This document shows, one piece after another, positions 30,641-61,299 of a stretch of 64,000 nucleotides of DNA. Where the stretch lies: positions 27,655 to 91,654 of the IMG/VR virus record IMGVR_UViG_3300023179_000057, one strand, 5' to 3'. Below the pieces are notes generated by a model. It did no database searches. It was not told the DNA's origin and saw only the letters and a list, made by a program, of their open reading frames with translations. A program made the position numbers and the translations under genes. Source of the DNA: a virus. Within the stretch, counting starts at the first letter, position 1, and each line of letters starts with the position of its first letter.

Positions 30641-31202
30641 CCCTAAAACTATTTGTGCAATTGATGCTAGTACTAATAGTCTTGCTTTTGCAATTTTTAA
30701 TAATAATAATTTAGGAAATATTGGAAAGATTAAATTTGAAGGAAATACTAACTATGAAAAAGTTATGGATGCGTGTAAAAAAACAAAAGCGTTTTTTGAA
30801 TATTATAATGGTTTTGAAGCAATTGTAATTGAGCATACTGTTTTTATGAATAGCCCTAAAACTGCTGCAGATTTAGCATTAGTTCAGGGTGCACTGTTAG
30901 GAGCAGCAGGATTGACTGGAACAAAGACGATAGGAACTGTAGCACCAATTACTTGGCAAAACTATTTAGGAAATAAAAAACTAACTAAAGAAGAACAGGT
31001 TATAATTAGATCAAAGAATCCTGGTAAGTCAGATTCTTGGTACAAGACATATGAAAGACAGATTAGAAAAGAAAGGACCATAAAGTTAATTGAAATCAAC
31101 TATTGTAAAACTATTAGCGACAATGATGTTGCTGACGCTTGTGGTATCGGTCATTGGGCTATTAATAATTGGAATAAAGCAATAAGGGAAAATATAAAAT
31201 GA
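30624..31202 (+). CDS. RuvC-like Holliday junction resolvase
   Basis: A 192-aa protein of the RNase H fold. ATG 30624 is chosen because AAAGGGG lies a suitable distance ahead. Candidate catalytic acids are D14 (CAIDASTNSL), E70 (IVIEHTVF) and the late Asp in ISDNDVADACGIG, the RuvC arrangement. It is longer than RuvC core in the middle (KSDSWYKTYERQIRKE). It would be the second junction-cleaving enzyme here beside the PD-(D/E)XK one at 28847. The stop overlaps the halogenase start (ATGA). Confidence 0.8.
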   Translation: MNNNGNPKTICAIDASTNSLAFAIFNNNNLGNIGKIKFEGNTNYEKVMDACKKTKAFFEYYNGFEAIVIEHTVFMNSPKTAADLALVQGALLGAAGLTGTKTIGTVAPITWQNYLGNKKLTKEEQVIIRSKNPGKSDSWYKTYERQIRKERTIKLIEINYCKTISDNDVADACGIGHWAINNWNKAIRENIK

Positions 31203-32662
31203 AACAAGTAAAAAGTTTAACTGTTGTTGGTGGTGGAACATCTGGATTAATTGCTGCATTAATTTTAAAATCAAGAAGTGATATAGATGTAAAATTAATT
31301 TATTCATCAAAAATTGAAATTTTAGGAGTTGGAGAAGGAACAACAGAACATTTTGGACAATTTATGTCTTTTGTTGGAATTAAACATAGTGAAATAATTA
31401 AAGAATGTGGTGCTACCTTTAAATTGGCGGTAGTTTTTGAAGATTGGGTTCCAAATAAAAAAACATATATTCATAGTGTAAATCATGGATTTTCTCATGA
31501 ACTTGGACAATATTGTTCTGTTTATGCAAAACAAATATCTGAAAATTCAGACTACATATATAGAAAAAATATAGAAAAAAATTTAGTACAAATAAATTCA
31601 ACTAATATAGATAACTATTCACCAGTAAATCAATATCATTTTGATAATTTTAAATTAAATAAATTTTTAAGAAAAAAAGCAATTGATAAAAATATAACAA
31701 TTATTGATGATGACATTATTGATGTTGAATTAAATAATGAAGGATATATAGATAATTTAATTGGATTAAAATCAAGATATAGTTCTGATTTCTATTTAGA
31801 TGCAACTGGATTTAAAAGAATATTAATGAATAAATTAAATGCTAAATGGATTTCATATAATAAATTTTTAAAAGTAAATTCTGCTATTGTATTTCCAACT
31901 GGGGATGAAGAAAATTATAATTATTTTTCATTATCAAAAGCAATGAATTCAGGCTGGAGATTTAAAATACCAACTTGGGGTAGACATGGAAATGGGTATA
32001 TTTTTGATAATAATTTTATTACGGCTGATGAAGCAAAAATAGAAATAGAAAAAGATTTGGGTTACGAGGTTGAAATTGCAAAAACATTCAAATTTGATGC
32101 TGGAGCATTAGAAAATGTATGGATAAAAAATTGTGTTGGAATAGGGGTTTGTGGAAATTTCTTTGAACCACTTGAAGCAACATCTATTGGACTAACCATT
32201 CAACAAAGTTTTTTATTAATGCATAGAATGCAAAATTATGATGAAATAGTTATAAAAGAATATAATAAATCATTTACCAACATGGTTGAAAATATTAGAG
32301 ATTTTATTTGTTTACATTATATAACTAAAAAAAATAATACTGAATTTTGGAAAAATAATTTAAAAACGGATATTCCAGATTCTTTAAAATATAATTTAGA
32401 AAAATGGAAAAATAAACTTCCAATAAGAGAAGATTTTGTTGGAAATTCAAACTACACAATGTTTGGACCAAATAATTTTATAACAGTTATGGCAGGACTT
32501 GATTTATTTAACAAATCTGCAATTTTAGATGAATATAATTTTTTATCTAAGAATTTAAAAAACATAACTGAGTATATTTTATTTAAAATTACAGAAAGTG
32601 AAAACAGTGAAAATTATTTAACTCATAAACAAATTTTAAAAATAATAAGAAATGAAGAATAA
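31199..32662 (+). CDS. flavin-dependent halogenase (tryptophan halogenase family)
   Basis: A 487-aa FAD enzyme. It has the dinucleotide-binding motif VVGGGTSGL at about 9-17, the GVGEGTTEH segment at 43-51, and TFKLAVVFEDW with K75 at the place of the catalytic lysine of PrnA (K79). GWRFKIPTWGRHGNGY (252-267) is a variant of the diagnostic GWxWxIP motif with Phe for the second Trp. EPLEATSIG (323-331) carries the conserved glutamate. Such enzymes use FADH2, oxygen and a halide to chlorinate or brominate aromatic substrates, and need a flavin reductase, not seen here. Marine cyanophages carry related viral halogenases. It is ATGA-coupled to a RuvC-like gene and followed directly by a conserved phage gene. 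The substrate is unknown. Confidence 0.85.
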   Translation: MKQVKSLTVVGGGTSGLIAALILKSRSDIDVKLIYSSKIEILGVGEGTTEHFGQFMSFVGIKHSEIIKECGATFKLAVVFEDWVPNKKTYIHSVNHGFSHELGQYCSVYAKQISENSDYIYRKNIEKNLVQINSTNIDNYSPVNQYHFDNFKLNKFLRKKAIDKNITIIDDDIIDVELNNEGYIDNLIGLKSRYSSDFYLDATGFKRILMNKLNAKWISYNKFLKVNSAIVFPTGDEENYNYFSLSKAMNSGWRFKIPTWGRHGNGYIFDNNFITADEAKIEIEKDLGYEVEIAKTFKFDAGALENVWIKNCVGIGVCGNFFEPLEATSIGLTIQQSFLLMHRMQNYDEIVIKEYNKSFTNMVENIRDFICLHYITKKNNTEFWKNNLKTDIPDSLKYNLEKWKNKLPIREDFVGNSNYTMFGPNNFITVMAGLDLFNKSAILDEYNFLSKNLKNITEYILFKITESENSENYLTHKQILKIIRNEE

Positions 32663-36106: not shown

Positions 36107-37723
36107 ATGAATTCATTTAAGAGAATCGCACTTGTTACGGCTGCAGCAGTAGCAAGCACATTCTTTGTTGCAGTTCCACAGGCTCAAGCAGCAGTAACTA
36201 ACGGATATGTACTATCCGATTCGTTGGCTGCAGGTGCTCGTGGAGTAACAGTATTAGCAGACACAACCAAGGCAGAGGCTGGAGTTAATGCAGTAGTTGT
36301 ATTAACTACAAGCGATACCTTGGCTTCTACAGCAGATGACAACGTTACGTTAGAAATTGCTGGACCTGCATCATTTACTGATTACACAGCAGCAGGGTCA
36401 AATCCTACTGGCGTAACACTTACCAGTTTAGGTAAATTATTTACATTTACAGCAACAACATCAGCAGCAGTAGGTTTACCAACAAATGTTAAACTAACTA
36501 TTAATGGTGCAGGTACTGTAACTGTAACTCAAAAGAAGAAGGTTGGATCAACTACTTTTACAATTGATATTAAAACAATCTACGCAGGAACAACCGCAAA
36601 GACAAATGTATTGTCTGTAGCAGATTCACATGTTCGTATTCAAGATACAGCAACACAAGGAACACTAACATCTAGCGTAGATGTTGCAACAGCAACTGCT
36701 GTTACCAATGCTGGTACAGGTTACATTAACGTCCGTGCAATGGATGCTTATGCAGCCGAATTATCAACAAGTGGTGTAATTCAAGCAAGCGCATCAGGTG
36801 GTGCAGTAGTGGCATGGGATGCTGCTCCAAGCACACAAGTAAATGCAGCAGCAAAGACTGGTACTGCTGGAGTTCTACATGTAGTTCAAGGAACTGCTAA
36901 TGAGAACAAGCCAGTAACTACAACAGTTACAATTACATTTAACGGTACAACTCTTGCAACAAAAACACTAACATTTACAGGTCGTGCAGCATCTATTTTA
37001 GTAACTGGAGTAGACATTGCACAATCTAATGGAGCACGTACAGGAACCTATGACTTTGTTGTTAAGGATTCCGCTGGTAATCAATTGGCTGGTATTACTC
37101 CAGTTGCTGATACAACCAAGTACACATCACAAGTAACTTCTGTTTCTGTAGGTGGAGCATCATCTGCAACAGCAGTACAAACTGGTGGATGGACATGTGC
37201 TTCAACATCAGGTTCAGCAACAGTGCGTATTTCACATACACACTCAGATGCAACAGTTATTTATTCAAATGATTTTGTTGCAGCATGTGCTGCTGGTGTA
37301 GACAAGTACACAGCAACTCTTGATAAGAAAGAGTACAAGGCTGGAGAAATTGCAACATTAACAATCTCAGCAACAGATGCAAATGGTGCTAAGGTACATG
37401 GTGCAGCAACTCTAGGTGCTGGCGTAGCAATTTCAGGTGGACAGTTGACAGCAGTTTCTGCTCCAACATCTGCTGACGTATTTGACACTGCTGGATCAAG
37501 ATCAATTAAGTTTACAGTAGGCAATACTGCTGGGGCATATAACTTGATTGTAGATCTACCAGCATACGTAGCAACTGATTCAGCAAAGGTAGTTTCTTAC
37601 TCCGTTGTTGATGCTTCAGGTGCAGTATCTAATGCTGAAGTATTAAAAGCAATTGTTGCTTTGATTGCACAAATCAATAAGCAAATTGCAGCATTACAGA
37701 AATTGATTCTCGCAAAGAAGTAA
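36107..37723 (+). CDS. exported surface-layer-like protein with Ig-like domains
   Basis: A 538-aa protein with an AAGGAG ribosome binding site and a classic signal peptide (SFKRIALVTAAAVASTFFVA, cleavage after AQA near residue 29). The mature part is Ala/Thr/Val-rich and beta-sheet-like, with repeated Ig-like strands (VTVLADTTKAEAGVN, YTATLDKKEYKAGEIATLTI). The C-terminal helix VSNAEVLKAIVALIAQINKQ followed by IAALQKLIL resembles the C-termini of exported surface proteins in aquatic Actinobacteria. Codon use is far more C/G-ended than in neighbours, like the capsid gene, so it is probably made in large amounts. It could be a host-derived surface protein that alters the infected cell, or a secreted virion-related protein. 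Confidence 0.65.
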   Translation: MNSFKRIALVTAAAVASTFFVAVPQAQAAVTNGYVLSDSLAAGARGVTVLADTTKAEAGVNAVVVLTTSDTLASTADDNVTLEIAGPASFTDYTAAGSNPTGVTLTSLGKLFTFTATTSAAVGLPTNVKLTINGAGTVTVTQKKKVGSTTFTIDIKTIYAGTTAKTNVLSVADSHVRIQDTATQGTLTSSVDVATATAVTNAGTGYINVRAMDAYAAELSTSGVIQASASGGAVVAWDAAPSTQVNAAAKTGTAGVLHVVQGTANENKPVTTTVTITFNGTTLATKTLTFTGRAASILVTGVDIAQSNGARTGTYDFVVKDSAGNQLAGITPVADTTKYTSQVTSVSVGGASSATAVQTGGWTCASTSGSATVRISHTHSDATVIYSNDFVAACAAGVDKYTATLDKKEYKAGEIATLTISATDANGAKVHGAATLGAGVAISGGQLTAVSAPTSADVFDTAGSRSIKFTVGNTAGAYNLIVDLPAYVATDSAKVVSYSVVDASGAVSNAEVLKAIVALIAQINKQIAALQKLILAKK

Positions 37724-40330: not shown

Positions 40331-40510
40331 ATGGAATGGTTAAAAAAGAGAATTATGGCAATTCTCAGCGAAAACTTTACATTTCTTGGCTTCTTTGTAG
40401 CATGGGTGGTTTTAGAGGGTAGTGCAAAGACTGTTGTAGGATATGTAACTTTAGCGTCTGTAGCCATCTGGTTCTTAACTATAGGCATTCGTGAAGAAGA
40501 GGATAAATAA
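40331..40510 (+). CDS. 59-aa membrane protein, candidate holin
   Basis: A short protein (MEWLKKRIMAILSENFTFLG start) with two hydrophobic segments (FLGFFVAWVVLEG and VVGYVTLASVAIWFLTIGI) and a charged REEEDK tail. Its place just ahead of a lipoprotein, another membrane protein and the endolysin makes it a holin candidate. It begins 3 nt after the previous stop; there is no good ribosome binding site, so it may be coupled. Confidence 0.55.
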   Translation: MEWLKKRIMAILSENFTFLGFFVAWVVLEGSAKTVVGYVTLASVAIWFLTIGIREEEDK

Positions 40511-41134: not shown

Positions 41135-41710
41135 ATGGCAAATCAAGGTACAGCAGAAAAGTTTATTGAAGTTGCATTAGCAGAAGTAGGAACTATAGAA
41201 GGTCCTAAAGATAACGAGACAAAGTATGGAGCGTATACCAAGGCTAATTTTCAACCTTGGTGTGGAAGTTTTGTGATGTGGTGTGCCAACGAAGCAGGAG
41301 TCAAAGTTCCAAACACTGTCTACACCCCAGGTGGAGCAGCAGCATTTAAGAAATCAAATTCATGGATTGATGGTGACGTTGCTGATCCTGAGCCAGGAGA
41401 TGTTGCTTATTTTGATTTCCCATCAGATGGCGTTGATCGTATATCTCATGTCGGAATTGTCGTTAAAGATAATGAAGATGGTACAGTTTGGTGCGTTGAG
41501 GGTAACACTTCTGGTGATGCAAAAGGAAGCCAAAGAAATGGTGGAGAGGTTTGTAGAAAACTTCGTGCCTATAAGAAAAATAAAAAAGGCATAATGATTT
41601 CTATTGTAGGGTTTGGTAGACCTAAGTTTGGATCTGCCCCTGCAGGTACCGCTAAAAAATCTCAAAATAAGCCTAAAACATGCTCAGAATGTGGTCAAGC
41701 CATTAAATAA
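41135..41710 (+). CDS. endolysin with CHAP domain and C-terminal zinc ribbon
   Basis: A 191-aa cell-wall hydrolase. The CHAP catalytic triad is visible: C43 in QPWCGSFVMW, His in DRISHVGIVV (about 106) and Asn in CVEGNTSG (about 122). An AEPGDV-like element (PEPGDVAYFDF) matches the family. The C-terminus after a Ser/Pro/Ala linker has CSECGQAIK, half of a zinc ribbon, possibly for wall binding or dimerisation. CHAP enzymes cleave peptidoglycan peptide or amide bonds. Partner of the preceding holin candidates. Confidence 0.85.
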   Translation: MANQGTAEKFIEVALAEVGTIEGPKDNETKYGAYTKANFQPWCGSFVMWCANEAGVKVPNTVYTPGGAAAFKKSNSWIDGDVADPEPGDVAYFDFPSDGVDRISHVGIVVKDNEDGTVWCVEGNTSGDAKGSQRNGGEVCRKLRAYKKNKKGIMISIVGFGRPKFGSAPAGTAKKSQNKPKTCSECGQAIK

Positions 41711-41736
41711 TGGTGTTTGACTAAGCCTAAAGGTTT

Positions 41737-41745
41737 TGATATACT
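41737..41745 (+). promoter_or_regulatory. extended -10 promoter (TGaTATACT)
   Basis: TGaTATACT lies 19 nt before ATG 41765, which has AAGGGG as ribosome binding site. It begins the transcript for the small membrane protein and proteasome-like gene. Confidence 0.5.
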
Positions 41746-41764: not shown

Positions 41765-41875
41765 ATGAATACATTTTATTTTTGGCACTCATTAGTAATT
41801 GGTCTATTGATGATTGGATCATTTTTTTGGGGCAAGCAATACGAAAAAAATAAAGTAACTAAAACAAATAATTAA
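41765..41875 (+). CDS. 36-aa single-pass membrane protein
   Basis: FYFWHSLVIGLLMIGSFFWG is one transmembrane helix, followed by a basic tail (KQYEKNKVTKTNN). It has its own promoter and ribosome binding site. Position between endolysin and the proteasome-like gene allows a role in lysis control, but nothing proves it. Confidence 0.5.
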   Translation: MNTFYFWHSLVIGLLMIGSFFWGKQYEKNKVTKTNN

Positions 41876-41891
41876 CTCTATAGGGAGTAGC

Positions 41892-42416
41892 ATGACTTGC
41901 CTTGCCGTAGTTCGCCATGAGAATAAAATCTATATGGCTGGAGATCGTGGTGCATCTGATGATAATACAATTCTTTCTTTAACAGCACCAAAGGTTTGGA
42001 AACTTGGTCCATACCTGCTTGGATATGCAGGGGCTTTAGACGGAGAACGTATTCGTTATAATTTTAATCCATATGTTCCAGACATAAAAGACTTAGATAA
42101 ATTTATGCAAACTAAATTTATTAAACAACTAAGAAACTTTTATAGTGACTGGTGGGTTGATACTGGCAAAGAGGCTGATCTTGGTTTAATTATTTGTATT
42201 AAAGGTCAAATATATGAACATAATGCAGTTGATATGTCCTTATCTAAATATGATTTAGATTATTTAGCCATGGGGTCTGGTTCAGAATATGCATATGGAT
42301 ATTTAAATGCAACAGAAAAATCTAAAGATGCTCGTAAAAGGGTAGTTGGTGCAGTAAATGCTGCTATTAAATTTAGTCCATCTTGCATGGGTCCTATTGA
42401 TGTGGTAAGTATATGA
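41892..42416 (+). CDS. proteasome beta/HslV-like Ntn-hydrolase
   Basis: A 174-aa protein of the proteasome-type Ntn-hydrolase fold. Removing the initiator Met exposes Thr as residue 1 (sequence TCLAVV). Counting from it, Asp falls at 17 (MAGDRGAS) and Lys at 33 (APKVWKL), the T1/D17/K33 triad of active proteasome beta and HslV subunits. LGYAGALDG (42-50) and MGSGSEYAYGYL (126-137) match the family strand-loop motifs including the GSG near S129. The C-terminus GPIDVVSI resembles the usual last strand. The family member cleaves peptides; whether it forms rings or works with a host ATPase is open. It overlaps the DUF6065-like gene by 4 nt. Confidence 0.82.
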   Translation: MTCLAVVRHENKIYMAGDRGASDDNTILSLTAPKVWKLGPYLLGYAGALDGERIRYNFNPYVPDIKDLDKFMQTKFIKQLRNFYSDWWVDTGKEADLGLIICIKGQIYEHNAVDMSLSKYDLDYLAMGSGSEYAYGYLNATEKSKDARKRVVGAVNAAIKFSPSCMGPIDVVSI

Positions 42417-43195
42417 TAATTAATCAAGAAGGTGGTCCAGTTGTTCCAGATAAAACTATTGCAATGTTTCCAGTTATAAGCGATGAAGGAATTGAACCGT
42501 TTGATTTAAAGGATATTTCTACATTTTTAAAACCATTAAATATTAATCATAAAAGAGATTGGTTTACTCCACATTTTTATAAATGTTTACCACTAGCAAT
42601 TGGAAATATGCAAGGATTTGTTTTTAGTTTACCGTATACATTTCACGTTTTGTGGAATGGTGGTAATGATGTTAATGATCTTTCAATATATTTTGAAGAA
42701 GAAATTTTAAAATATAATAATAAATCTTTTATTAAACCAGTTTCAGAATTTGGTCATGGAATTCTTACAATTCATTATCCAGTAACATTAAAAACACCTC
42801 CAGGAATAAATTTAATGACAATTGCACCACCAAATTTTCCTCTTCCTGGTTTAAGCCCTATGACTGGAGTAATAGAGTCTGATAATATTAGATTTAGTTT
42901 TACATTAAATATAAAAATAGATTTTCCAAATACAGACTTTAAAATACAGGCAAATTATCCTTTAATGGGAATATTACCAATTCCTAGAAATTTTTGTGAT
43001 TCTTTTGAATTAAAAGATTCAAATGAAATTTTTGAAAAAAATATAATACAAGATGAAATGTTAATTGTAAGAGAACACTCTAATGCAAGAGATTTTGCAA
43101 ATAAAAATAATTTGGGTCAAGATAAATTATATTATTCAGGAAAAGATTTTAGAAAAAATAATTTTAAAAATCATCAATTACCAAAAAAAATATAA
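42413..43195 (+). CDS. DUF6065-like protein, paralogue A
   Basis: A 260-aa protein ATGA-coupled to the proteasome-like gene. It has the DUF6065 pattern: RDWFTPHFYKCLPLAIGNMQ, then FHVLWNGGND, FGHGILTIHYP, LKTPPGINLMTIAPPNFP, TGVIESD and a final strand MGILPIPR. Four more relatives occur in the window (51743, 52479, 58686, 60579), but this one is closest to the named family. The C-terminal 50 residues are basic. Function unknown; the PPG...G(V/I)(I/V)(D/E)xD...P(I/F) order recalls the beta-clip fold of dUTPases (inference). Confidence 0.65.
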   Translation: MIINQEGGPVVPDKTIAMFPVISDEGIEPFDLKDISTFLKPLNINHKRDWFTPHFYKCLPLAIGNMQGFVFSLPYTFHVLWNGGNDVNDLSIYFEEEILKYNNKSFIKPVSEFGHGILTIHYPVTLKTPPGINLMTIAPPNFPLPGLSPMTGVIESDNIRFSFTLNIKIDFPNTDFKIQANYPLMGILPIPRNFCDSFELKDSNEIFEKNIIQDEMLIVREHSNARDFANKNNLGQDKLYYSGKDFRKNNFKNHQLPKKI

Positions 43196-43954: not shown

Positions 43955-44029
43955 GCGGAAGTAGTTCAATGGTAGAATACTACCTTGCCAAGGTGGATGT
44001 TGCGGGTTCAAATCCCGTCTTCCGCTCCA
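43955..44029 (+). tRNA. tRNA-Gly (GCC)
   Basis: A full cloverleaf: acceptor GCGGAAG/CTTCCGC, D arm, anticodon arm with GCC at 43987-43989, T arm CGGGTTCAAATCCCG, and an encoded CCA end. Read of GGC/GGU glycine codons. Confidence 0.93.
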
Positions 44030-44030
44030 C

Positions 44031-44102
44031 GCCCTCATGGTCTAGTGGTTATGACATCACCCTTTCACGGTGGTAACAGGGGTTCAATTCCCCTTGGGGG
44101 TA
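44031..44102 (+). tRNA. tRNA-Glu (TTC)
   Basis: Acceptor GCCCTCA with TGGGGGT (two wobble pairs), anticodon TTC at 44064-44066, T arm AGGGGTTCAATTCCCCT. Unlike the tRNA-Gly, no CCA is encoded (CTA follows), so host CCA addition is needed. One nt separates it from the tRNA-Gly; they probably share a transcript. Confidence 0.9.
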
Positions 44103-44110
44103 CTAAAATT

Positions 44111-44179: not shown

Positions 44180-44608
44180 ATGGTAAGTTCATTTGCACTG
44201 GATCTTTTTAAAGATCCATTTTTTATTGGTTTCAATCGTGAATTGGAACGTTTAAGCACAGTACACAATCTAGCAACTCGTCAGGCATATCCGCCGTATG
44301 ACATTATAAAATTAGACGAAGATACGTACAAGTTATCTTTAGCAGTTGCTGGTTTTTCTCAAGAAAATATTGATGTTTCTGTAGACAATGGAACATTAAT
44401 TATTAAAGGAGAAATTACTGAAATTCAAGATGCAGAAGTAGTACATAAAGGTATTGCAGGTCGTAAATTTACCCGCACATTTGCTCTTGGAGAATATATG
44501 GAAGTAACTGGCGCTGAAATGAAGGACGGCATGTTACACATCAACATTGATCGTATCATTCCAGAAGATAAAAAACCAAAACAAATCAAAGTAAAAGTTG
44601 CTAAATAA
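44180..44608 (+). CDS. hsp20: small heat shock protein (Hsp20)
   Basis: A 142-aa alpha-crystallin-type chaperone. Features: N-terminal FALDLFKDPFFIGFNRELER, then the alpha-crystallin domain YKLSLAVAGFSQENIDVSV, GTLIIKGEI, RKFTRTFALGEYMEVTGAEM and GMLHINIDRIIPE, and the usual C-terminal P-x-x-I (KPKQIKV). It holds unfolding proteins for refolding; cyanophages and other aquatic phages often carry it. AAGGAG lies 9 nt upstream within the mini-ORF. Confidence 0.9.
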   Translation: MVSSFALDLFKDPFFIGFNRELERLSTVHNLATRQAYPPYDIIKLDEDTYKLSLAVAGFSQENIDVSVDNGTLIIKGEITEIQDAEVVHKGIAGRKFTRTFALGEYMEVTGAEMKDGMLHINIDRIIPEDKKPKQIKVKVAK

Positions 44609-49384: not shown

Positions 49385-49684
49385 TTGAAGCAGCATTTAT
49401 GGAAAGATAACGCTGCATGTTTAGGACTTAATACTAATATTTATTTTGATAAATATGAAGATAATTTAGAGTCCAGATATAATGTTGATGCGTTTTGTAA
49501 ACAATGCCCAGTTAGAAAAATATGTTTTGCTAATGGAGTTTCTGGTAAAGAGTGGGGTGTCTGGGGCGGTGTATACTTAGAAGGTGGAGAAATATCAAAA
49601 GAATTTAATAAACATAAAAATAAAAAAGCCTGGTCTCAAATCTGGCAATCTTTAACAATGGAGGAAAAAAATGAAAAAAAATAA
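49385..49684 (+). CDS. whiB: WhiB-family iron-sulfur regulator
   Basis: A 99-aa protein starting at TTG 49385. It has the four WhiB cysteines (C12 in NAACLG; C38, C41 and C47 in AFCKQCPVRKICFANG) and the family turn GVWGGVYLEGG (58-68). WhiB proteins bind a 4Fe-4S cluster, interact with the principal sigma factor and are confined to Actinobacteria and their phages, so this is strong host evidence. The C-terminal basic tail (KHKNKKAWS) replaces the usual DNA-binding region. It may redirect host RNA polymerase to phage promoters or block host genes. Confidence 0.9.
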   Translation: MKQHLWKDNAACLGLNTNIYFDKYEDNLESRYNVDAFCKQCPVRKICFANGVSGKEWGVWGGVYLEGGEISKEFNKHKNKKAWSQIWQSLTMEEKNEKK

Positions 49685-51742: not shown

Positions 51743-52489
51743 ATGAATTTTTTATTTAATAAAGATAAAACAGCAAAAATTGATTTTGTAACCACAGTTC
51801 CAGGTTTAAGTATGTTGGAAGATTGCAAACCAAAATTAGCAAAAGAATATATTCCAGATTGGTGGAAAAAAAGTCCAACAATAAAAACAGAATTTACATT
51901 TAATGGCGCACTTGCTGGAAATTTTAAAAGTTGTCCATCATTTTCAGACTATTTTTCAAAAGGATATATTCTTCCAATGTGGGTTGATTCATATTTATTT
52001 TATAATTCAGAAGATCAAAGTTGGAAGTGGTCAGTTTCAGACGCTAATTTTAGTTGGCAAACTCATGCAAACAGTCAATATTTAGATTATGTTGATCATA
52101 AATTTTTAAATAAAAATTCTTTTTTTGTTTTTAAAACAAAAATTCCATGGAATATTTTTACAAGTAAAGGATATTCATTATATCAGTTACCAACATTTTT
52201 TCATTTTAACGAAGACTTTTCTGTCATTCCTGGAGTAAGAGATACAGATGTTTATCATGAAATAAATATTCAATTATTAATTCATAGTGATAAAAAAGAA
52301 ATTTTTATACCAAGAGGAACTCCATTAGCACAATACATTCCTTTTAAAAGAGAAAAAACAAAATTTAATGTTAGAGAGGCAACAAAAAAAGATTTATTTA
52401 GAATTAATTTACATAATCTTAATTTATCAACTAGATTTCATAAAACACAAACATACAAAATAGATAGGAAAAAAAATAATGAAAAATAA
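51743..52489 (+). CDS. DUF6065-like protein, paralogue B
   Basis: A 248-aa protein abutting the previous gene. Family features: EYIPDWWKKSPTIK, FKSCPSFSDYFSKGYILPMW, VDSYLF, FFHFNEDFSVIPGVRDTDVY, IFIPRGTPLAQYIPFKREK. Here the PPG motif is replaced (TSKGYSLYQLPTF) and G(I/V)VD is GVRDTD, so this copy diverges most among the four PEWW-type members. It overlaps the sister copy at 52479 by 11 nt, a tandem pair that differs widely in sequence. Function unknown. Confidence 0.6.
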   Translation: MNFLFNKDKTAKIDFVTTVPGLSMLEDCKPKLAKEYIPDWWKKSPTIKTEFTFNGALAGNFKSCPSFSDYFSKGYILPMWVDSYLFYNSEDQSWKWSVSDANFSWQTHANSQYLDYVDHKFLNKNSFFVFKTKIPWNIFTSKGYSLYQLPTFFHFNEDFSVIPGVRDTDVYHEINIQLLIHSDKKEIFIPRGTPLAQYIPFKREKTKFNVREATKKDLFRINLHNLNLSTRFHKTQTYKIDRKKNNEK

Positions 52490-53201
52490 AAAAATTATTT
52501 TTAGGCCAACCACAGACCTCACAGAAGAAGTTACTCCAGCCCCAGAACCTATAAAAAATGATATTTCTAAATGGTATAAAAATCTTAAAAGATATATAAA
52601 TAATGGAATTATAAGTGATGGATCTAAAGATTTTTTTAATTCAAGAACAGCAAAAACATGTATTCCATTTTTTGATTCAATGACTTATGGATATTCTTAT
52701 AAACTACCTTATGATATTTTTTGTACATATAACAAAGAAGGAGAAAGAAAGGTTCAATGGGGAAAAACCGATGAGGGATATATTGGATCTCACAAAATTG
52801 AACAGATTGGCGAATATCCAATACCACAAGGATATGAAAATATTATTTTAAAAGTAAACACAACTTGGTGTGTACAAACCCCTCCAGGATATAGTTTACT
52901 TTATATGCATCCTTTAGGAAGGTTTGATTTACCATTTTATAGTTTTCATGGTATCGTTGATTCTGATAAATTTTATAAAAACGTAAATATGCCAATGGTA
53001 CTTAAAGTTGGATTTGAAGGAACAATAAAAGCGGGAACTCCAATTTCACAACTTATTCCTATAAAAAGAGAATCTTGGGTTTCTGAAAAAAAGAAATTTT
53101 ATGAAGATAATTATAATCCATATGTTGATAATATTATGGCTTTAATAAATTTAGAAGGTTTTTATAAAAATAATAAATGGGTAAAAAAAGAATGCAATTA
53201 A
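52479..53201 (+). CDS. DUF6065-like protein, paralogue C
   Basis: A 240-aa protein in tandem with paralogue B. It has NDISKWYKNLKRY, TCIPFFDSMTYGYSYKLPYD, WCVQTPPGYSLLYMHPLGRF, FYSFHGIVDSDKFY, FEGTIKAGTPISQLIPIKRE. This gives the full family order: (E/D)W(W/Y), C.PFFDS, LPYD, TPPGYS, GIVDSD, GTPxxQLIP. Two members side by side (B and C) suggest complementary subunits or substrates. Confidence 0.65.
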   Translation: MKNKKIIFRPTTDLTEEVTPAPEPIKNDISKWYKNLKRYINNGIISDGSKDFFNSRTAKTCIPFFDSMTYGYSYKLPYDIFCTYNKEGERKVQWGKTDEGYIGSHKIEQIGEYPIPQGYENIILKVNTTWCVQTPPGYSLLYMHPLGRFDLPFYSFHGIVDSDKFYKNVNMPMVLKVGFEGTIKAGTPISQLIPIKRESWVSEKKKFYEDNYNPYVDNIMALINLEGFYKNNKWVKKECN

Positions 53202-53699: not shown

Positions 53700-54392
53700 A
53701 TGGACTTTGTATATATATGTAAGGAAGGCGTTAACGAAGAACTAAAGTATTCTATTAGGTCTGTCGTTGAAAGTTTTCCAGATTCTAATGTCTGGGTTGT
53801 TGGCGGTAAGCCTGACTGGTATGTAGGAAATTATATTGAAGTACACCAAGTTCATACTAAATATAAAAATGCTATAGAAAATTTAAAAAAGATTTGTTCA
53901 TCACCAGAAATATCAAATGAGTTTGTTTTAATGAATGATGACTTTTATATTATTAAAAAGATAGATAGTATAGAGAATTTTCATGGCGGATATTTATTAA
54001 ATAAAATAAACTTATATCAAAAAATAAACGGTAATTCTAACTATACTAGAAAACTTAATGCTACATATAAAAGACTCAAAGGACTTGGGATTGATGATCC
54101 ATTAGATTATGAGTTACATGTTCCAATGATCATGGAAAAAGAAAAGTTACAAGAAGTATTAAATAATAACGATCAATTTTTATGGAGATCTATGTATGGG
54201 AATATATTTAAAGTCGGTGGATCAGAGATGCAAGATGTTAAGGTTTATACCAGGGGGCCATTAGTTTTTAAATCTTATAATTTAAATATAGATCAGCATA
54301 CATTTTTATCTAGTGCAGATAGTTCTTTTGATATTATTTGGAATAGTATACTCAAGACTCAGTTTAAACAAAAAACTAAATTTGAGAAATAA
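53700..54392 (+). CDS. Stealth-like sugar-phosphotransferase/glycosyltransferase
   Basis: A 230-aa protein. The first part (FVYICKEGVNEELKYSIRSV, VWVVGGKPDWY) looks like the nucleotide-sugar-binding half of a GT-A-type fold; EFVLMNDDFYIIK has the paired Asp motif seen in Stealth-family CR2 (NDDFF). The latter half includes KLNATYKRLKGLG and YELHVPMIMEK, as in Stealth proteins. They transfer sugar phosphates to surface polymers. It converges with the minus-strand glycan operon and overlaps its last gene by 17 nt, so it may act in the same surface modification. Confidence 0.6.
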   Translation: MDFVYICKEGVNEELKYSIRSVVESFPDSNVWVVGGKPDWYVGNYIEVHQVHTKYKNAIENLKKICSSPEISNEFVLMNDDFYIIKKIDSIENFHGGYLLNKINLYQKINGNSNYTRKLNATYKRLKGLGIDDPLDYELHVPMIMEKEKLQEVLNNNDQFLWRSMYGNIFKVGGSEMQDVKVYTRGPLVFKSYNLNIDQHTFLSSADSSFDIIWNSILKTQFKQKTKFEK

Positions 54393-55413
54393 GTTCTAAG
54401 TATTTATCTTTTAAGATACTTGGAGAAAAGTTTGCAACTCCAATGTTATATGCTTTTTCTTTGTAAGATGTTTTATCTTTAATAGTCATATAGTCATCAA
54501 TTGTTTTTGCTAAATATTTTTGATCTGCTTCAAATAATTCAATCCTAACTTTTGTTCTAATTGTTCCTATTGAATCACTCTTAACTAGCCACTCTGGCGG
54601 TAATATAAAATTATTAGGCGATATATTTGTCATAAAAACTGGCAAGGCACTTAGTAAAGCCTCATTCATTGGCAGACACAATCCAGCATAACGTCGTGGT
54701 AAAACCATAGCATCAAATCCATTATACATGTCTTCCCTATTGTCTGGATTACCAATTTCAATTTTAAGTCTTGAATCTTTTATATTTGTTTCTATTTCAC
54801 TTTGACTTTTGATTACTAATTCATAATCTGCTTTAGAGTGCTTAAGCATATCAATAACAGTTTCAGTACCGTTTCTATCTTTTGCTGCTTTTTTACCAGC
54901 AATATGTAAAATTCTATTATGAGACTTAGACAAGTTATTTTCTTTTATTTTATTAAATAATTCTTCATTCGTTGGTGGTGGAAGATGAATTACTTTTGTT
55001 TTGGAGCCAAACATTTTTTTAATGTGTTCAATTTGCCAAACACTTGGAGATAAAAGTGCCGTTGGTAATGGTAGATTTGGATTTACTAAATGGCCAAATA
55101 ATTCATAGTTATATTGAAGAATTGTTTTTACATTTCTTTTATTAGCAAACCTTATAAAGTTTTGATCATAAAATGTTTCACAACTTAATACAATATCTAT
55201 ATCGTTTAAAAACATTTTTATTTGTTGAAGAGATGGAAATCCATTTGTCTTAAGAGAATCATAACCTTGATACCATTCTGGATGTTGTTTATTTTTATTA
55301 AATGGAGTAGAGTCAATTAAAAGAATTTTATTAGGATTAAGCATATTAACTAATTCTCTGGTTTGATTACCAAGCCCAGTATTGTCTGATCTTGCTATTA
55401 TTCCCAATCTCAT
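54376..55413 (-). CDS. glycosyltransferase, GT4-like (GT-B fold)
   Basis: A 345-aa protein. The N-terminal half is Rossmann-like (RLGIIARSDNTGLGNQTREL with the acceptor-binding glycine motif). The C-terminal half has RILHIAGKKAAKDRNGTETV, DAMVLPRRYAGLCLPMNEAL, the E-x7-E-like retaining GT4 region (with GLCLPMNEALLSALPVF). Overlaps the previous operon gene by 4 nt. Predicted to transfer a sugar from an activated donor to a surface glycan or virion protein. Confidence 0.75.
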   Translation of the reverse strand: MRLGIIARSDNTGLGNQTRELVNMLNPNKILLIDSTPFNKNKQHPEWYQGYDSLKTNGFPSLQQIKMFLNDIDIVLSCETFYDQNFIRFANKRNVKTILQYNYELFGHLVNPNLPLPTALLSPSVWQIEHIKKMFGSKTKVIHLPPPTNEELFNKIKENNLSKSHNRILHIAGKKAAKDRNGTETVIDMLKHSKADYELVIKSQSEIETNIKDSRLKIEIGNPDNREDMYNGFDAMVLPRRYAGLCLPMNEALLSALPVFMTNISPNNFILPPEWLVKSDSIGTIRTKVRIELFEADQKYLAKTIDDYMTIKDKTSYKEKAYNIGVANFSPSILKDKYLELISQI

Positions 55414-56171
55414 TCTTTATAACCCCAGGTTTCATCATCTGAAGTAAATTTGCGGGTACCCTGACGACCATCCAAGTGATAAGATCTTTTAATATGTCCC
55501 TCTGGGTGATATATCCATAGTTTATGTTGTTGCCAACCATCTTCACTGTATTTATCATAAGGTAATATTTCATCTTGTAATTTGCCATGAAAAGTGTCTT
55601 CTATAAAGAATATATCTTTGCAACTTGGCAATACAATATCTTTGTAATAAGACTTTGTGCTTAAATGTGGTCTTTGACTCCATTGTGCTGTTTTCATAAA
55701 GCCATCTTCAATTCCAAACATTAGGTGTTCATGTTCTTTAGGAATTCTTGATTCAAAATGAAAACGAATAGTGTTAGCCTTTTTATATTCAAACATATCT
55801 AAACATTTTTCCCAATCAATTGGCATATCTGGCGTTAGTGGTGCGTCTCCTTCTACATAAAGTAAAAGAGGTGTTTTAATTTCATTGATTGTTTCACGCA
55901 TCATATTTGTTTGATGACTATGCTGTTTAAAAACAAATGGAACTATGTTTTTATATTCATGCAAACATTTCCAAAGTATACGATTTTTGTATTCATCGTA
56001 ATCTTTTTTGCGATTCTGTTGTTCTAGTCTTAATCCATCTATCTGCATTATAATTTCATTATCTGGAAAATGAACACGAAGGTCACCAATTGTTTGTTCT
56101 ATCATAGTGGTATTAGGATGATCTGGTATGACAGATGTTGCTAAAATAATCGTTATATCATTTTTATGCAT
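55410..56171 (-). CDS. glycosyltransferase, GT-A type
   Basis: A 253-aa protein. TIILATSVIPDHPNTTMIEQ starts a nucleotide-sugar-binding domain, LRVHFPDNEIIMQIDGLR follows, and LLLYVEGDAPLTPD has an EGDAP motif in the place of the metal-binding DxD. FHFESRIPKEHEHLMFG and YPEGHIKRSYHLDG-like segments follow. Within a five-gene operon with overlaps of 4-8 nt. Confidence 0.65.
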   Translation of the reverse strand: MHKNDITIILATSVIPDHPNTTMIEQTIGDLRVHFPDNEIIMQIDGLRLEQQNRKKDYDEYKNRILWKCLHEYKNIVPFVFKQHSHQTNMMRETINEIKTPLLLYVEGDAPLTPDMPIDWEKCLDMFEYKKANTIRFHFESRIPKEHEHLMFGIEDGFMKTAQWSQRPHLSTKSYYKDIVLPSCKDIFFIEDTFHGKLQDEILPYDKYSEDGWQQHKLWIYHPEGHIKRSYHLDGRQGTRKFTSDDETWGYKE

Positions 56172-57018
56172 TTATTTGCTCCATGATTTTAATAGATAAA
56201 TCTCTTTTATATTTAATCCACCAACAAACAATTTGATGCATTTCAGACACATAAACATCTAACAGGTATGGCATCATGTCAACAAGGTCTGACCAATTTT
56301 CAACTGTTTTTATAGAATGATTATCCTCAAAAACAAAATTAAAAAAATCAGTATTTATACCTTTTGAGTCTATTTTATCTCCTATTGGTAAACAAAGCAT
56401 TTCAATGGCTTCAAAAAATCTAAAAGAATCAATTACTTCCGCACCACTTGGACAAGGAACAATTTTGCTAATAAACATTTTATCGTAATAGTTTTTAGGT
56501 TTTAATCCTTCGGCAAAACCTTTGGTAGGATTATAAAAAGAATTTGGAATATTAGGCATAACGGCAGCCAATTGTTTTCTTCTTTGGTGAGTTATTTGAC
56601 CAGAAAAAAATACATCATACACTTTATTTTGATAGTCTGGCAAATTTTTTGATAAATGTTGTGGAACTCCTATTGGCAATTTATTATATTTTTGATGTTT
56701 TTTATGTGGATACTGAATCCAAATTTCACAATTGTTATGTTTAATTTTTTCAATATTAAATGTTGCACTTTCATCTCCAGTAATAAACAAAACAAGTCTT
56801 TTTATTTTTTGCAATTCTACATTTATTACATCTTCATATTCTATATTTTGTGGTCCAGGAATTACAACAAAAGCACGATCACACTCTGGTAAAGATGTTA
56901 CTTTAATTTGTTTAATTTTATTTTTATTAAATATTTCTTTTAATAATCCATAGTCCCATTTGTCAGCAGCACAATCTTCTTCTTTAACAGAATATAAATA
57001 TGTTTTAATATTATTCAT
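56164..57018 (-). CDS. exostosin-like (GT47-type) glycosyltransferase
   Basis: A 284-aa protein when started at ATG 57018, which overlaps the previous stop (ATGAATAA). Features: YDVFFSGQITHQRRKQLAAV, FISKIVPCPSGAEVIDSFRF and FEAIEMLCLPI, like the exostosin C-terminal donor-binding segment (capable of recognising nucleotide sugars). IPVG- and WSDLVDMMPYLL-type segments close the protein. Part of the glycan operon. Confidence 0.65.
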   Translation of the reverse strand: MNNIKTYLYSVKEEDCAADKWDYGLLKEIFNKNKIKQIKVTSLPECDRAFVVIPGPQNIEYEDVINVELQKIKRLVLFITGDESATFNIEKIKHNNCEIWIQYPHKKHQKYNKLPIGVPQHLSKNLPDYQNKVYDVFFSGQITHQRRKQLAAVMPNIPNSFYNPTKGFAEGLKPKNYYDKMFISKIVPCPSGAEVIDSFRFFEAIEMLCLPIGDKIDSKGINTDFFNFVFEDNHSIKTVENWSDLVDMMPYLLDVYVSEMHQIVCWWIKYKRDLSIKIMEQINA

Positions 57019-57718
57019 AATATAAATGTACTTCATGCTGATAGTCAAGCAGTGTTTCTTTATAACCCAGTCCCCATAACCAAAATCTTAAATCATATAA
57101 GTATTCATTCCATTGTTGCATCATAAACTCTGGATGACCAGATAACCATATCTTAGGCTTAAACTGTCTTAAAACGGTTTCTGCGCCTTTTAAAACACGC
57201 CCTTCACTGCCTTCTACGTCTAAAGAAATGGCGGTAGGGGCAACAATATTATGATCGTATACACAAGAATCTATAGTAATCTGACCATAAGAATTACCTT
57301 CTAAGTATAACTCTTTAAATCCGTGTGCTGAATCAATAACATTATTTGCTTCTGGTGGCCATTCATTATAATAAATTCTTGATAAATTATTTATTTTATC
57401 AGACGCAAATCCAGGAATACAGGCAATTGGTTTGTCTAAATTATTTGATTCCCATAGTAATGGATAGTGTGACCATACTTTTGGATTAGGTTCAAATATC
57501 ACAGTTTTTGCTCCCCATATTTGACAAAGAGCAACCATTTCTCCTTCTTCTCCGCCCACATAATAAACTATATCGTTTATTCCAAGATTATTATGCATTG
57601 ATCGTAATCTATTTTTTTCCCAACCTTTTTCTGTATACCACTCAGGTCTATCAGCACGATGTTTTGGTAAAACTATTTTATATTCTCCATTAACTGTTGC
57701 TTTGATCATTTCTATCAT
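57011..57718 (-). CDS. FkbM-family methyltransferase
   Basis: A 235-aa protein; ATG 57718 is chosen for its ATGA overlap with the previous stop. FkbM signs: VYYVGGEEGEMVALCQIWGA, KTVIFEPNPKVW (SAM-binding acidic residue), and AISLDVEGSEGRVLKGAETV. FkbM enzymes O-methylate sugars and polyketides. Here it likely caps or decorates the glycan made by its operon neighbours. Confidence 0.85.
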   Translation of the reverse strand: MIEMIKATVNGEYKIVLPKHRADRPEWYTEKGWEKNRLRSMHNNLGINDIVYYVGGEEGEMVALCQIWGAKTVIFEPNPKVWSHYPLLWESNNLDKPIACIPGFASDKINNLSRIYYNEWPPEANNVIDSAHGFKELYLEGNSYGQITIDSCVYDHNIVAPTAISLDVEGSEGRVLKGAETVLRQFKPKIWLSGHPEFMMQQWNEYLYDLRFWLWGLGYKETLLDYQHEVHLYYE

Positions 57719-58674
57719 TTGATGTTTAAAGTTTCTAATATTGTAGACCATCTGTGAACATAGGTATGTTCTTTTTTAGTTCGTTCATGACCAGCAATTC
57801 TTATTTTTTCTCTTGTTACTCCATCTAATATATAATAATCTATTTTTTCTTTAAGATCTTCAAGATTCCCGTGCTCATAAAATATAATTTCTTTGCCATC
57901 TTCAAAGTATTGATCAAGTCCTTTTATGCGAGGGTAGATAGTAAAACCACCACGACCAGTGCTTTCAAACAACCTATCGCTTGTATAGTATGGGTAGTTA
58001 AAGTTTATATTAAGGCTATCTCCTATGGCTACCTTGCTTTTTGCGTAGATACGATTAAGTGCATCACCACGAACTGTTCCAGTATCTCCGTCTCCACCAA
58101 CATGCAAAAATCTTTTTCCATATGTCTTTCGTAAAAAGTCTATTAGTTGTGGACGATACTTATGTTCTGGGTGATATCCTTTGCTACCAACAAAGATTAT
58201 GTCATGCTCAAAGTTATTTATATCATAATCAGAATGTATATAACACTCTTTATCATATACGCCAGCAGGCAAAAAATGTCCTTTAACACTTGTATTTTTA
58301 TTAAACCAATCACACATTAATTTATCTGTAGCAAAAAAGTGACCTATGTTTGTATAAAAATCATCACCCTTTAAATCTTTTTCACGTTCAATACCAAACC
58401 ACAAGTCAAGATGATAAGTCATTGTTGTTTTGTTTACAGCCTTTAATTGTTTTAATACATCTGTCATAGATAATTTGCCTGGGGTTTGCCATCTATGTGT
58501 GTGTACCCATATAAATAAATCAGATGCTAATGCTTTATATAAAATTTCTTCGCTTGTTGCTTTCTTTTCCTGCATTTTTTGCACGGTATGTCCAAGAGAC
58601 TCTAAAGACTTAGCATGATGATTCTCACTGCTATAGGGAACTTCAAAGTTACCAAGAAAAATTATATTAGACAT
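57715..58674 (-). CDS. glycosyltransferase, CgeB/GT-B-like
   Basis: A 319-aa protein at the head of the glycan operon. Features: NIIFLGNFEVPYSSENHHAK, VHTHRWQTPGKLSMTDVLKQ, DIIFVGSKGYHPEHKYRPQL, KSKVAIGDSLNINFNYPYYTS then RLFESTGRGGFTIYPR. The late RLFES-GRGG region fits the CgeB-type GT-B donor site. It and the GT4-like protein bracket a GT-A, a GT47-like and a methyltransferase. Confidence 0.7.
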   Translation of the reverse strand: MSNIIFLGNFEVPYSSENHHAKSLESLGHTVQKMQEKKATSEEILYKALASDLFIWVHTHRWQTPGKLSMTDVLKQLKAVNKTTMTYHLDLWFGIEREKDLKGDDFYTNIGHFFATDKLMCDWFNKNTSVKGHFLPAGVYDKECYIHSDYDINNFEHDIIFVGSKGYHPEHKYRPQLIDFLRKTYGKRFLHVGGDGDTGTVRGDALNRIYAKSKVAIGDSLNINFNYPYYTSDRLFESTGRGGFTIYPRIKGLDQYFEDGKEIIFYEHGNLEDLKEKIDYYILDGVTREKIRIAGHERTKKEHTYVHRWSTILETLNIK

Positions 58675-58685
58675 AAAGATTTCAT

Positions 58686-59405
58686 TTATTTATAAGTTTT
58701 TTTTACTCTAAGATATCTTGAATAAGATCCAATTAATTTTGTTCTAAGTTTTTCTACATTAAAATATAATTGATTTTCATTTTCTAAAATAAAATTAGAT
58801 TGCCAATCACTTCTTTTAAAAGGAATTATTTGAAACATTGGAGTTCCTTTTTCTATAATTCCTTCAAAATTATTTTTAATAAAAAATGGAGTATTTATTT
58901 CAGTTTCTAAGATATCTGTGTCCACTATTCCAGAAATTGTTTTAATTGGTATATTCTGATATCCAAAAGGATGAGTAATTAAACAAGACCATCCTGGTGG
59001 AGTTTTAATTGTCCATCCATGAATATATTTTAATACTGTTGAAGAAAAACCATCTGGTATTTCGTATTTAGAAACTTGCGTTTCATGCCAAGTATCAAAC
59101 ACAACTTCTTGTGATGACCACTGAATTAATGGAATATCATTTTCTTTTGAAACAAAAACATCTGTCCAAAGCGGAACTATGTATCCAGCAGTTAATGCGT
59201 CTAATGCTGGAGCGCATTTTTTTACAGTAACTGTAGGACCTGGATTAAGTTTAAATTTATTTTCTAAATTACTATATGGCTTCATTTCTTTCCACCACTC
59301 TGGCAGAGCATTTGACGATGGAAATGGTTTTTCTCTAACTTTCCAAACATGTTCATTCTGTGCTCTAAAAGTAATTATATTTTTATTATTTTTTTTAAAT
59401 TTCAT
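58686..59405 (-). CDS. DUF6065-like protein, paralogue D
   Basis: A 239-aa protein; ATG 59405 preceded by AGAGGT. It shows the family blocks clearly: LPEWWKEMKPYS, TVKKCAPALDALTAGYIVPL, WTIKTPPGWSCLITHPFGY, KTISGIVDTDILE, FEGIIEKGTPMFQIIPFKRS. It lies just before the glycan operon on the same strand, 11 nt from it, so it is probably co-transcribed. Function unknown. Confidence 0.65.
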   Translation of the reverse strand: MKFKKNNKNIITFRAQNEHVWKVREKPFPSSNALPEWWKEMKPYSNLENKFKLNPGPTVTVKKCAPALDALTAGYIVPLWTDVFVSKENDIPLIQWSSQEVVFDTWHETQVSKYEIPDGFSSTVLKYIHGWTIKTPPGWSCLITHPFGYQNIPIKTISGIVDTDILETEINTPFFIKNNFEGIIEKGTPMFQIIPFKRSDWQSNFILENENQLYFNVEKLRTKLIGSYSRYLRVKKTYK

Positions 59406-59607
59406 TTTGACCTCTAGCAATTGCAGCAGATGCTTCAAAGGCTTTTTGTGTTCTACGAGATTTTAATAAGCCTCTTGATTTCCAAAGTGGAACAGTTGCT
59501 TCAATATCTTTGGCTATTTGCTCTCTTATTTCTTTAACAGTAAAAACAATAAAATTCCAAACCTCTTCTTTTTGTTTATCATTAAGTTCATCTGTCCAAT
59601 TAGTCAT
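59395..59607 (-). CDS. small helical protein, unknown
   Basis: A 70-aa protein started at ATG 59607 (GAGGAAGAAG ahead) and overlapping two neighbours. Helical throughout (NDKQKEEVWNFIVFTVKEIR), with EQIAKDIEATV and AFEASAAIARGQNE. The EQIA.DIEA and AA.IAR.Q blocks recur in the next minus-strand gene at 59725, suggesting distant paralogues. Confidence 0.5.
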   Translation of the reverse strand: MTNWTDELNDKQKEEVWNFIVFTVKEIREQIAKDIEATVPLWKSRGLLKSRRTQKAFEASAAIARGQNEI

Positions 59608-61283: not shown

Positions 61284-61290
61284 ACTTATC

Positions 61291-61299
61291 ATTGTATCA
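61291..61299 (-). promoter_or_regulatory. extended -10 promoter, leaderless start (TGaTACAAT)
   Basis: On the minus strand TGaTACAAT (61299-61291), 7 nt, then ATG 61283 of paralogue E. Confidence 0.6.

What the first reader, a model, noticed from the sequence alone, without database searches (positions are those of the whole stretch)
41892..42416. Phage-encoded proteasome/HslV-like hydrolase with T1, D17 and K33 in exact register
After Met removal the protein begins with Thr; Asp and Lys fall exactly at 17 and 33, and GSG lies near 129, as in active proteasome beta subunits. Actinobacteria have a 20S proteasome, so the phage protein could form its own peptidase ring, join or poison host rings, or work in lysis timing since it follows the endolysin. 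It lacks a propeptide and is ATGA-coupled to a DUF6065-like gene.
Basis: partly seen in the sequence, partly recalled or inferred. Interest (0 to 1): 0.78.

Follow-up and report, generated by a model that had tools for sequence, protein, structure and literature searches.

The report
Actinophage proteasome-like peptidase with private promoter
A freshwater phage of Actinobacteria carries a gene for a small, apparently active relative of the proteasome and HslV protein shredders; such phage proteins were already known, but this virus-only branch, its private promoter and its recurring neighbour gene were found here.

Summary
Window 41892-42416 encodes a 174-aa protein starting Met-Thr, with D17 and K33 in exact register and no propeptide; GSG is at 127-129. 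It is homologous to proteasome/HslV (PHROG 1040, 1.6e-19), and its AlphaFold2 model (pLDDT 94.5) matches BPH and HslV. Across 188 distinct relatives T1 and K33 never vary and D17 varies only to Glu (4). dN/dS is about 0.05. It is an active-type N-terminal-Thr hydrolase. The kind is known: Fuchs et al. 2021 described phage proteasome homologues. This one belongs to a well-supported virus-only branch carried by whiB-encoding actinophages. The lysis-timing idea loses ground. The gene sits after the endolysin but has its own near-consensus extended -10 promoter (41717-41745), present before this gene in 86% of 180 leaders and before 22 neighbour genes in 0-15%. In a GC-richer sister clade a covarying hairpin spans promoter and ribosome-binding site and would silence read-through mRNA, the logic known from T4 gene e. 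No AAA+ unfoldase reached its cut-off in the window's phage or 27 clade relatives. The optional DUF6065 neighbour is usually adjacent, on either side. Best reading: a homo-oligomeric, unfoldase-independent peptidase expressed separately from lysis. Substrates are unknown.

The parts
41717..41745 (+). extended -10 sigma70-type promoter TTGACT-N17(TGA)-TATACT
   Evidence: Only exact match to the family motif in the window; equivalent site -54 to -62 from ATG in 86% of 180 unique relatives vs 0-15% for 22 neighbouring genes. In the window a small ORF lies between promoter and HslV.
41765..41875 (+). small one-helix membrane ORF (36 aa), inserted between promoter and HslV in this subclade
   Evidence: SD AGGGG and ATG 19 nt after the -10; by blast found in few relatives
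41883..41887 (+). Shine-Dalgarno GGGAG of the HslV-like gene
   Evidence: purine-rich SD conserved in relatives
41892..42416 (+). proteasome/HslV-type N-terminal threonine hydrolase, 174 aa
42413..43195 (+). DUF6065 gene, ATGA-coupled; optional operon partner, weak dUTPase-like fold match
   Evidence: PF19541 E 1.9e-32; same strand as HslV in all 27 locus copies, downstream or upstream, 25 with gaps of -4 to 9 nt; fold search E 3.5e-4
41135..41710 (+). CHAP endolysin
   Evidence: PF05257 E 1.8e-11, endolysin PHROGs
40331..40510 (+). g59, small hydrophobic protein of the lysis cassette (holin-like by sequence only); precedes HslV even where CHAP has moved
   Evidence: synteny
44180..44608 (+). 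phage Hsp20 small heat-shock protein, co-occurs with HslV
   Evidence: PF00011 E 5.9e-19; in 24 of 27 clade records
49385..49684 (+). WhiB-like regulator, marks an actinophage
   Evidence: PF02467 2.6e-12

Best explanation
A phage-encoded member of the proteasome-like (group I, HslV/BPH-like) family. SHOWN: predicted fold, conserved Thr1-Asp17-Lys33 and GSG, no propeptide, strong purifying selection, a virus-only branch in whiB-encoding actinophages, and a conserved dedicated sigma70-type promoter motif just before the gene (or before a short operon with a small membrane ORF or DUF6065). INFERRED: methionine aminopeptidase exposes Thr1; subunits assemble into a homo-oligomeric (BPH/HslV-like) ring; the ring cleaves unfolded or selected proteins without its own AAA+ unfoldase, perhaps fed by the phage Hsp20 or host chaperones; expression is set by host sigma70 RNA polymerase independently of the upstream lysis operon. 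In the GC-richer sister clade a hairpin that forms only on read-through mRNA hides the ribosome-binding site (or terminates transcription), so only promoter-born transcripts are translated. Role during infection: most likely early or independent removal of host or misfolded proteins rather than lysis.
For: AF2 pLDDT 94.5, pTM 0.90, S1-S11 with H1-H4; PDB matches BPH 5ovt 2.7e-12, TM 0.80, then HslV; family profile vs HslV 3.9e-15, BPH 8.2e-12; T1/K33 invariant in 188 sequences; dN/dS about 0.05; whiB in G000 and 25 of 27 clade records; tree: 41-row virus-only clade, support 99/94; signature pattern in at least 119 viral contigs but only 3 real hits in 257 Gb of genomes; promoter and control with neighbouring genes; hairpin mean z -3.96, SD open 0.09 on read-through vs 0.44 on own transcript, covariation in 7 of 8 pairs, 0/500 shuffles reach the score; no AAA or AAA_2 over cut-off in G000 or 27 clade records.
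Against: No activity, oligomer, transcript or substrate data. Ring assembly not modelled (monomer prediction only). The long hairpin is absent from the window's own clade (mean z 0.06). A sigma70-like promoter does not prove early timing. The phage contigs may be fragments, so a missing unfoldase is not proven. Four relatives have Glu for Asp17.
Confidence: 0.55

Rival explanations
1. Lysis-timing protease: made with holin and endolysin and acting at the end of infection.
For: Follows the lysis cassette with conserved synteny.
Against: Own promoter in 86% of relatives, far above neighbouring genes; covarying hairpin in the sister clade that would block translation from lysis-operon mRNA; in other phages (T5-like Eps7, Geobacillus E3) the homologue lies near nucleotide-metabolism genes, not lysis genes.
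Confidence: 0.12
2. Modifier or poison of the host 20S proteasome through mixed rings.
For: Many Actinobacteria have 20S proteasomes (established knowledge); shared fold.
Against: Profile and fold are nearest HslV/BPH; PrcB matches only over about 50 residues; an intact active site under purifying selection is not needed for a poison; the host proteasome is unknown and some Actinobacteria lack it (control).
Confidence: 0.05
3. Specific processing enzyme or ligase (connectase-like, or counter-defence protease) cutting one or few targets, with DUF6065 as optional partner or substrate.
For: Private promoter; DUF6065 of this subtype on the same strand and near HslV in all 27 locus copies, upstream or downstream, and 7 of the 8 copies found in 30 whole records are those beside HslV; no unfoldase.
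Against: No connectase-type insertion between S3 and S4; no substrate known; DUF6065 absent from most relatives.
Confidence: 0.25
4. Catalytically dead relic or structural protein that keeps the fold only.
For: Four relatives carry Glu at the Asp17 position.
Against: T1 and K33 invariant, GSG nearly so, dN/dS about 0.05; Glu also stands at this place in a solved archaeal beta subunit (6z46_H alignment).
Confidence: 0.03

Closest known systems
Phage 'peptidase HslV family' (PHROG 1040), e.g. T5-like Epseptimavirus Eps7, Vibrio phages phiTY18 and henriette
   Same: Full-length homology, M-T start, T1/D17/K33
   Different: About 30% identity or less; other hosts; genes lie among nucleotide-metabolism genes; outgroup phages tested mostly lack the conserved promoter
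[quoted passage not shown] Fuchs, Alva and Lupas 2021, PMC8665760)
   Same: Group I compact fold, no propeptide, also found in phages; probable AAH from Rhizobium, Streptomyces and Bacillus plasmids align full length
   Different: 24-28% identity; separate branch in the tree; the paper found no actinophage AAH
[quoted passage not shown] PMC8665760)
   Same: Viral; short 162-163 aa forms (L161, L129, L148, L162), PPH-like by length, are the sister group in the tree
   Different: PPH is about 140 aa and lacks helix H2; this protein has 174 aa and H2 (residues 68-86)
BPH (5ovt, 5ovs, 5ovu) and HslV (1m4y, 6kui)
   Same: Best fold and profile matches; BPH is also thought to work without an unfoldase (PMC8665760)
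   Different: 16-24% identity in the fold alignments; no HslU gene; phage-borne
Actinomycetia phage DSL-LC01 (OQ999401)
   Same: Lake actinophage with an annotated HslV next to whiB, plus a Trp halogenase
   Different: Distant branch with a long end branch; not next to a lysis cassette
T4 gene e / soc / 49 / I-TevI leaders (PMC3014915)
   Same: Promoter placed so that the upstream arm of an SD-hiding hairpin is missing from promoter-born mRNA (gene e case)
   Different: Here a sigma70-type promoter and a protease gene, GC-richer clade only; not tested by experiment

Membership tests
Proteasome-like (Ntn, group I) family | S1-S11 beta core with flanking helices | tested here: met
   AF2 model, Foldseek to BPH/HslV/20S beta
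Proteasome-like (Ntn, group I) family | Thr1, Asp17, Lys33, oxyanion Gly | tested here: met
   the Gly that corresponds to Gly47 is taken as G46 here (one-residue shorter loop, own alignment)
Proteasome-like (Ntn, group I) family | Ring oligomer and peptidase activity | not testable with these tools
   monomer prediction only
HslV | Curated HslV model score | tested here: not met
   TIGR03692 23.8 bits vs cut-off 157.75
HslV | Partner HslU | tested here: not met
   no AAA_2 or AAA in G000; none over cut-off in 27 clade records; records may be fragments
20S proteasome beta (actinobacterial PrcB) | Curated 20S_bact_beta score, propeptide | tested here: not met
   TIGR03690 16.7 bits vs 191.9; no propeptide
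PPH | About 140 aa, lacks H2 | tested here: not met
   174 aa, H2 at 68-86
AAH | Clusters with AAH sequences | tested here: inconclusive
   blast E 7.5e-16 to L206 and 5e-12 to a Streptomyces copy, but a separate virus-only branch in the tree; the AAH reference sequence itself was not available
PHROG 1040 peptidase HslV family | Profile match | tested here: met
   E 1.6e-19 over residues 1-174

The most novel reading that the evidence does not exclude
A self-standing proteolytic ring of actinophages, expressed from its own promoter before or apart from the lysis genes and, in one clade, kept silent on read-through mRNA by a hairpin with the promoter inside, which removes specific host (for example defence or takeover-target) proteins without an unfoldase, with a dUTPase-fold DUF6065 protein as an optional operon partner.
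Probability: 0.2. Interest if true: 0.75.

Novelty: new member of a known kind. Interest (0 to 1): 0.45.

Why it matters
Fuchs et al. 2021 left phage proteasome homologues without any functional context and found no actinophage carrying AAH. A clade of more than 100 actinophage contigs with conserved synteny, a private promoter and a recurring partner gene gives first handles on when such an enzyme is made and what it may work with. Cultured Nanopelagicales and phages infecting them (PMC10202952) could make this testable. The hairpin with an internal promoter would extend a T4-style control to an unrelated gene and phage group.

Tried and rejected
Exact 17/33 numbering as a strict rule: many relatives have a 2-aa S1-S2 insertion (51 of 97 in the two unbiased sets have the longer lengths); the alignment columns, not the numbers, are conserved. 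DUF6065 coupling as a fixed pair: rejected at first (17 of 80), then revised, because copies of this subtype lie beside HslV in either order. Long hairpin as a feature of the window itself: rejected (mean z 0.06 in its clade). Bacterial relatives by conserved-peptide scan of genomes: no relative found. phiTY18 query in viral contigs: no match. Host 20S status of Nanopelagicales: no paper in the library holds both terms and no genome handle was available. The profile comparison shares a sequence between both sides and is not used as evidence. The apparently stronger conservation of HslV than of its neighbours was not used, because loci were chosen by HslV identity.

Full report
Observation. The ORF at 41892-42416 (+) encodes 174 aa, MTCLAVVRHENKIYMAGDRG...PKVWK...AMGSGSEYAYG...CMGPIDVVSI. 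With Met removed, residues 1, 17 and 33 are T, D and K, and GSG is 127-129. A GGGAG Shine-Dalgarno lies 4 nt before the ATG. Relatives keep the Met-Thr start (one has GTG) behind a purine-rich SD and close upstream stops, so there is no propeptide.

Family. PF00227 reaches 24.3 bits (cut-off 22.4), PHROG 1040 'peptidase HslV family' E 1.6e-19 over the whole length. The curated HslV, archaeal beta and bacterial beta models score far below their cut-offs, so it is a relative, not HslV or PrcB itself. A profile of 46 sequences finds HslV (3.9e-15) and BPH (8.2e-12) in the PDB over the full length, but actinobacterial PrcB only over the first 50 residues. AlphaFold2 with these sequences gives pLDDT 94.5 and pTM 0.90, with strands and helices in the order of a proteasome subunit including H1-H4 and without S12/H5. 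Foldseek's best solved structures are BPH (2.7e-12, TM 0.80) and HslV; its best viral hits are phage proteins, one already named HslV, and include Gordonia phage Daredevil.

Conservation. 282 relatives (188 distinct) from three searches plus named phage and plasmid proteins were aligned: T1 188/188, K33 188/188, G43 188/188, G127 188/188, D17 184/188 (4 Glu). One of the sets was found with a pattern that demands M-T, G-D and P-K; the two unbiased sets alone give T1 97/97, K33 97/97, D17 93/97. Glu also stands at this place in the archaeal beta subunit 6z46_H (alignment) and, from memory, in Thermoplasma beta (Glu17), so it need not mean inactivity. Median dN/dS against 45 relatives is about 0.05. 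Dead or poison roles are therefore unlikely.

Distribution. The signature M-T-x14-GD-x14-P-K-[VIM]-[aromatic, Leu or Cys]-K in exact register occurs in at least 119 viral contigs (the scan stopped at its limit) and in only four stretches of 257 Gb of bacterial and archaeal genomes, one of which is not a homologue. Many deep branches are long and some forks are open, so deep order is uncertain.

Host. G000 carries a WhiB gene and so do 25 of 27 sampled records of the clade, while outgroups L118, L142 and L162 do not. WhiB is described as exclusive to Actinobacteriota and their phages (PMC10202952, PMC10611076). The window also has DUF7455. Fuchs et al. 2021 (PMC8665760) reported that no actinophage with AAH could be found; the lake actinophage DSL-LC01 (OQ999401) has since been deposited with an annotated HslV next to whiB, although its paper does not discuss it.

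Neighbourhood. In the close relatives the order is TerL, surface proteins, g59, lipoprotein, membrane protein, CHAP, HslV, variable gene(s), Hsp20, FmdB, DUF7455, SNase, thioredoxin. In more distant members HslV still follows g59 although CHAP has moved behind Hsp20 (L166, L109, L123). The slot behind HslV is variable. The DUF6065 subtype of 42413 occurs in a minority, but all 27 locus copies (some are duplicates of one record) lie on the same strand as HslV and 25 have gaps of -4 to 9 nt; in L273-L275 and L279 it lies upstream and overlaps HslV by ATGA. These loci were fetched around HslV, which favours such a result, so 30 whole records were searched: 8 copies, of which the 7 with at least 54% identity belong to records whose copy lies beside HslV (1.5 kb away in one), and one of 42% lies elsewhere. 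The order flip suggests more than simple inheritance of neighbours, but events were not counted.

Private promoter (found here). A near-consensus extended -10 sigma70 promoter, TTGACA/T-N17-18 with TG-N-TATACT, lies 54-62 nt before the HslV ATG in the clade: mean best score 10.4 vs 8.2 in shuffles for close relatives, 10.75 vs 8.0 for the others including outgroups, most of which lack it. With the same scoring, 86% of 180 unique HslV leaders pass, against 0-15% for 22 neighbouring genes; the 13% for CHAP includes loci where CHAP is displaced and has its own promoter, as in L166. In the window the promoter is 41717-41745, directly after the endolysin stop, and a 36-aa membrane ORF has come between it and HslV. 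In L273 the promoter precedes the DUF6065-HslV pair. In the window scan it is the only exact match. Promoter consensus hits as such are at chance level in this region; it is the conservation that carries the claim.

Hairpin. In the clade of 65-85% identity, the promoter spacer (for example GCCCTCTC) is complementary to the Shine-Dalgarno region (GAGAGGGC). Over 56 leaders the mean folding z is -3.96; the SD is open with probability 0.09 on read-through RNA and 0.44 on RNA starting at the promoter. On 41 distinct leaders, 7 of 8 pairs show double changes, and the score exceeds all 500 shuffles and all slid controls (related sequences can exceed shuffles without structure, so the slid controls matter too). 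T4 gene e and I-TevI use this logic (PMC3014915). The stem is followed by 3-5 T, so a terminator overlapping the promoter is an alternative; both insulate HslV from the upstream operon. The window's own clade lacks this stem (mean z 0.06).

No unfoldase. Neither AAA_2 nor AAA reaches cut-off in G000 or in 27 clade records; only outgroup L118 has AAA over cut-off. Hsp20 is present in 24 of 27. The same lack of a partner is noted for these homologues in general by Fuchs et al., who suggest ATP-independent work.

Mechanism and limits. Shown: predicted fold, residues, selection, clade, promoter conservation. Inferred: Met removal, ring, activity, timing, substrates. I give 0.55 to the stated explanation as a whole, nearly all doubt being on ring, timing and role. 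As a kind it is known; the clade, the promoter and hairpin, and the DUF6065 association are the additions.

Noticed in passing
window 42413-43195, 51743-52489, 52479-53201 (+), 58686-59438, 60579-61292 (-): Five DUF6065/phrog_7084 paralogues in one phage. The model of the first (pLDDT 82) weakly matches dUTPase/dCTP deaminase structures (E 3.5e-4), and paralogues carry GVIDSD and GTPISQLIP-like stretches reminiscent of dUTPase motifs, so DUF6065 may be a diverged dUTPase-fold family.
   Followed up: partly
window 31199-32662: Flavin-type tryptophan halogenase (PF04820 E 3.6e-89) in this actinophage; DSL-LC01 is reported to carry one too.
   Followed up: no
L051, L055, L068, L253: Asp17 replaced by Glu, each time in a protein of the longer length with the S1-S2 insertion, in two separate subclades.
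   Followed up: partly
L203:8217, L150:6119, L120:4170, L216:78, L240:474, L264:76, L005:143: A second extended -10 motif (TTGAC...GTGATACAAT) 64-84 nt before the secreted surface protein MNS[FL]KKIA..., within or near the end of TerL; may be coding conservation or a second private promoter.
   Followed up: no
window 36107-37723: Secreted 538-aa surface-type protein directly after TerL, with no family match beyond a weak Ig-like hit.
   Followed up: no
L085:3626-4537 (Vibrio phage phiTY18): The gene after the HslV homologue looks like a SohB/SppA-type S49 peptidase (from sequence reading only).
   Followed up: no
window 43955-44103: Two tRNA genes (Gly-GCC, Glu-TTC) in the variable slot between HslV and Hsp20.
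   Followed up: no
window 54376-59438, minus strand: Run of ORFs on the minus strand, opposite to the rest, some reading like sugar-transfer enzymes by eye; GC skew flips there. Not annotated with a library.
   Followed up: no
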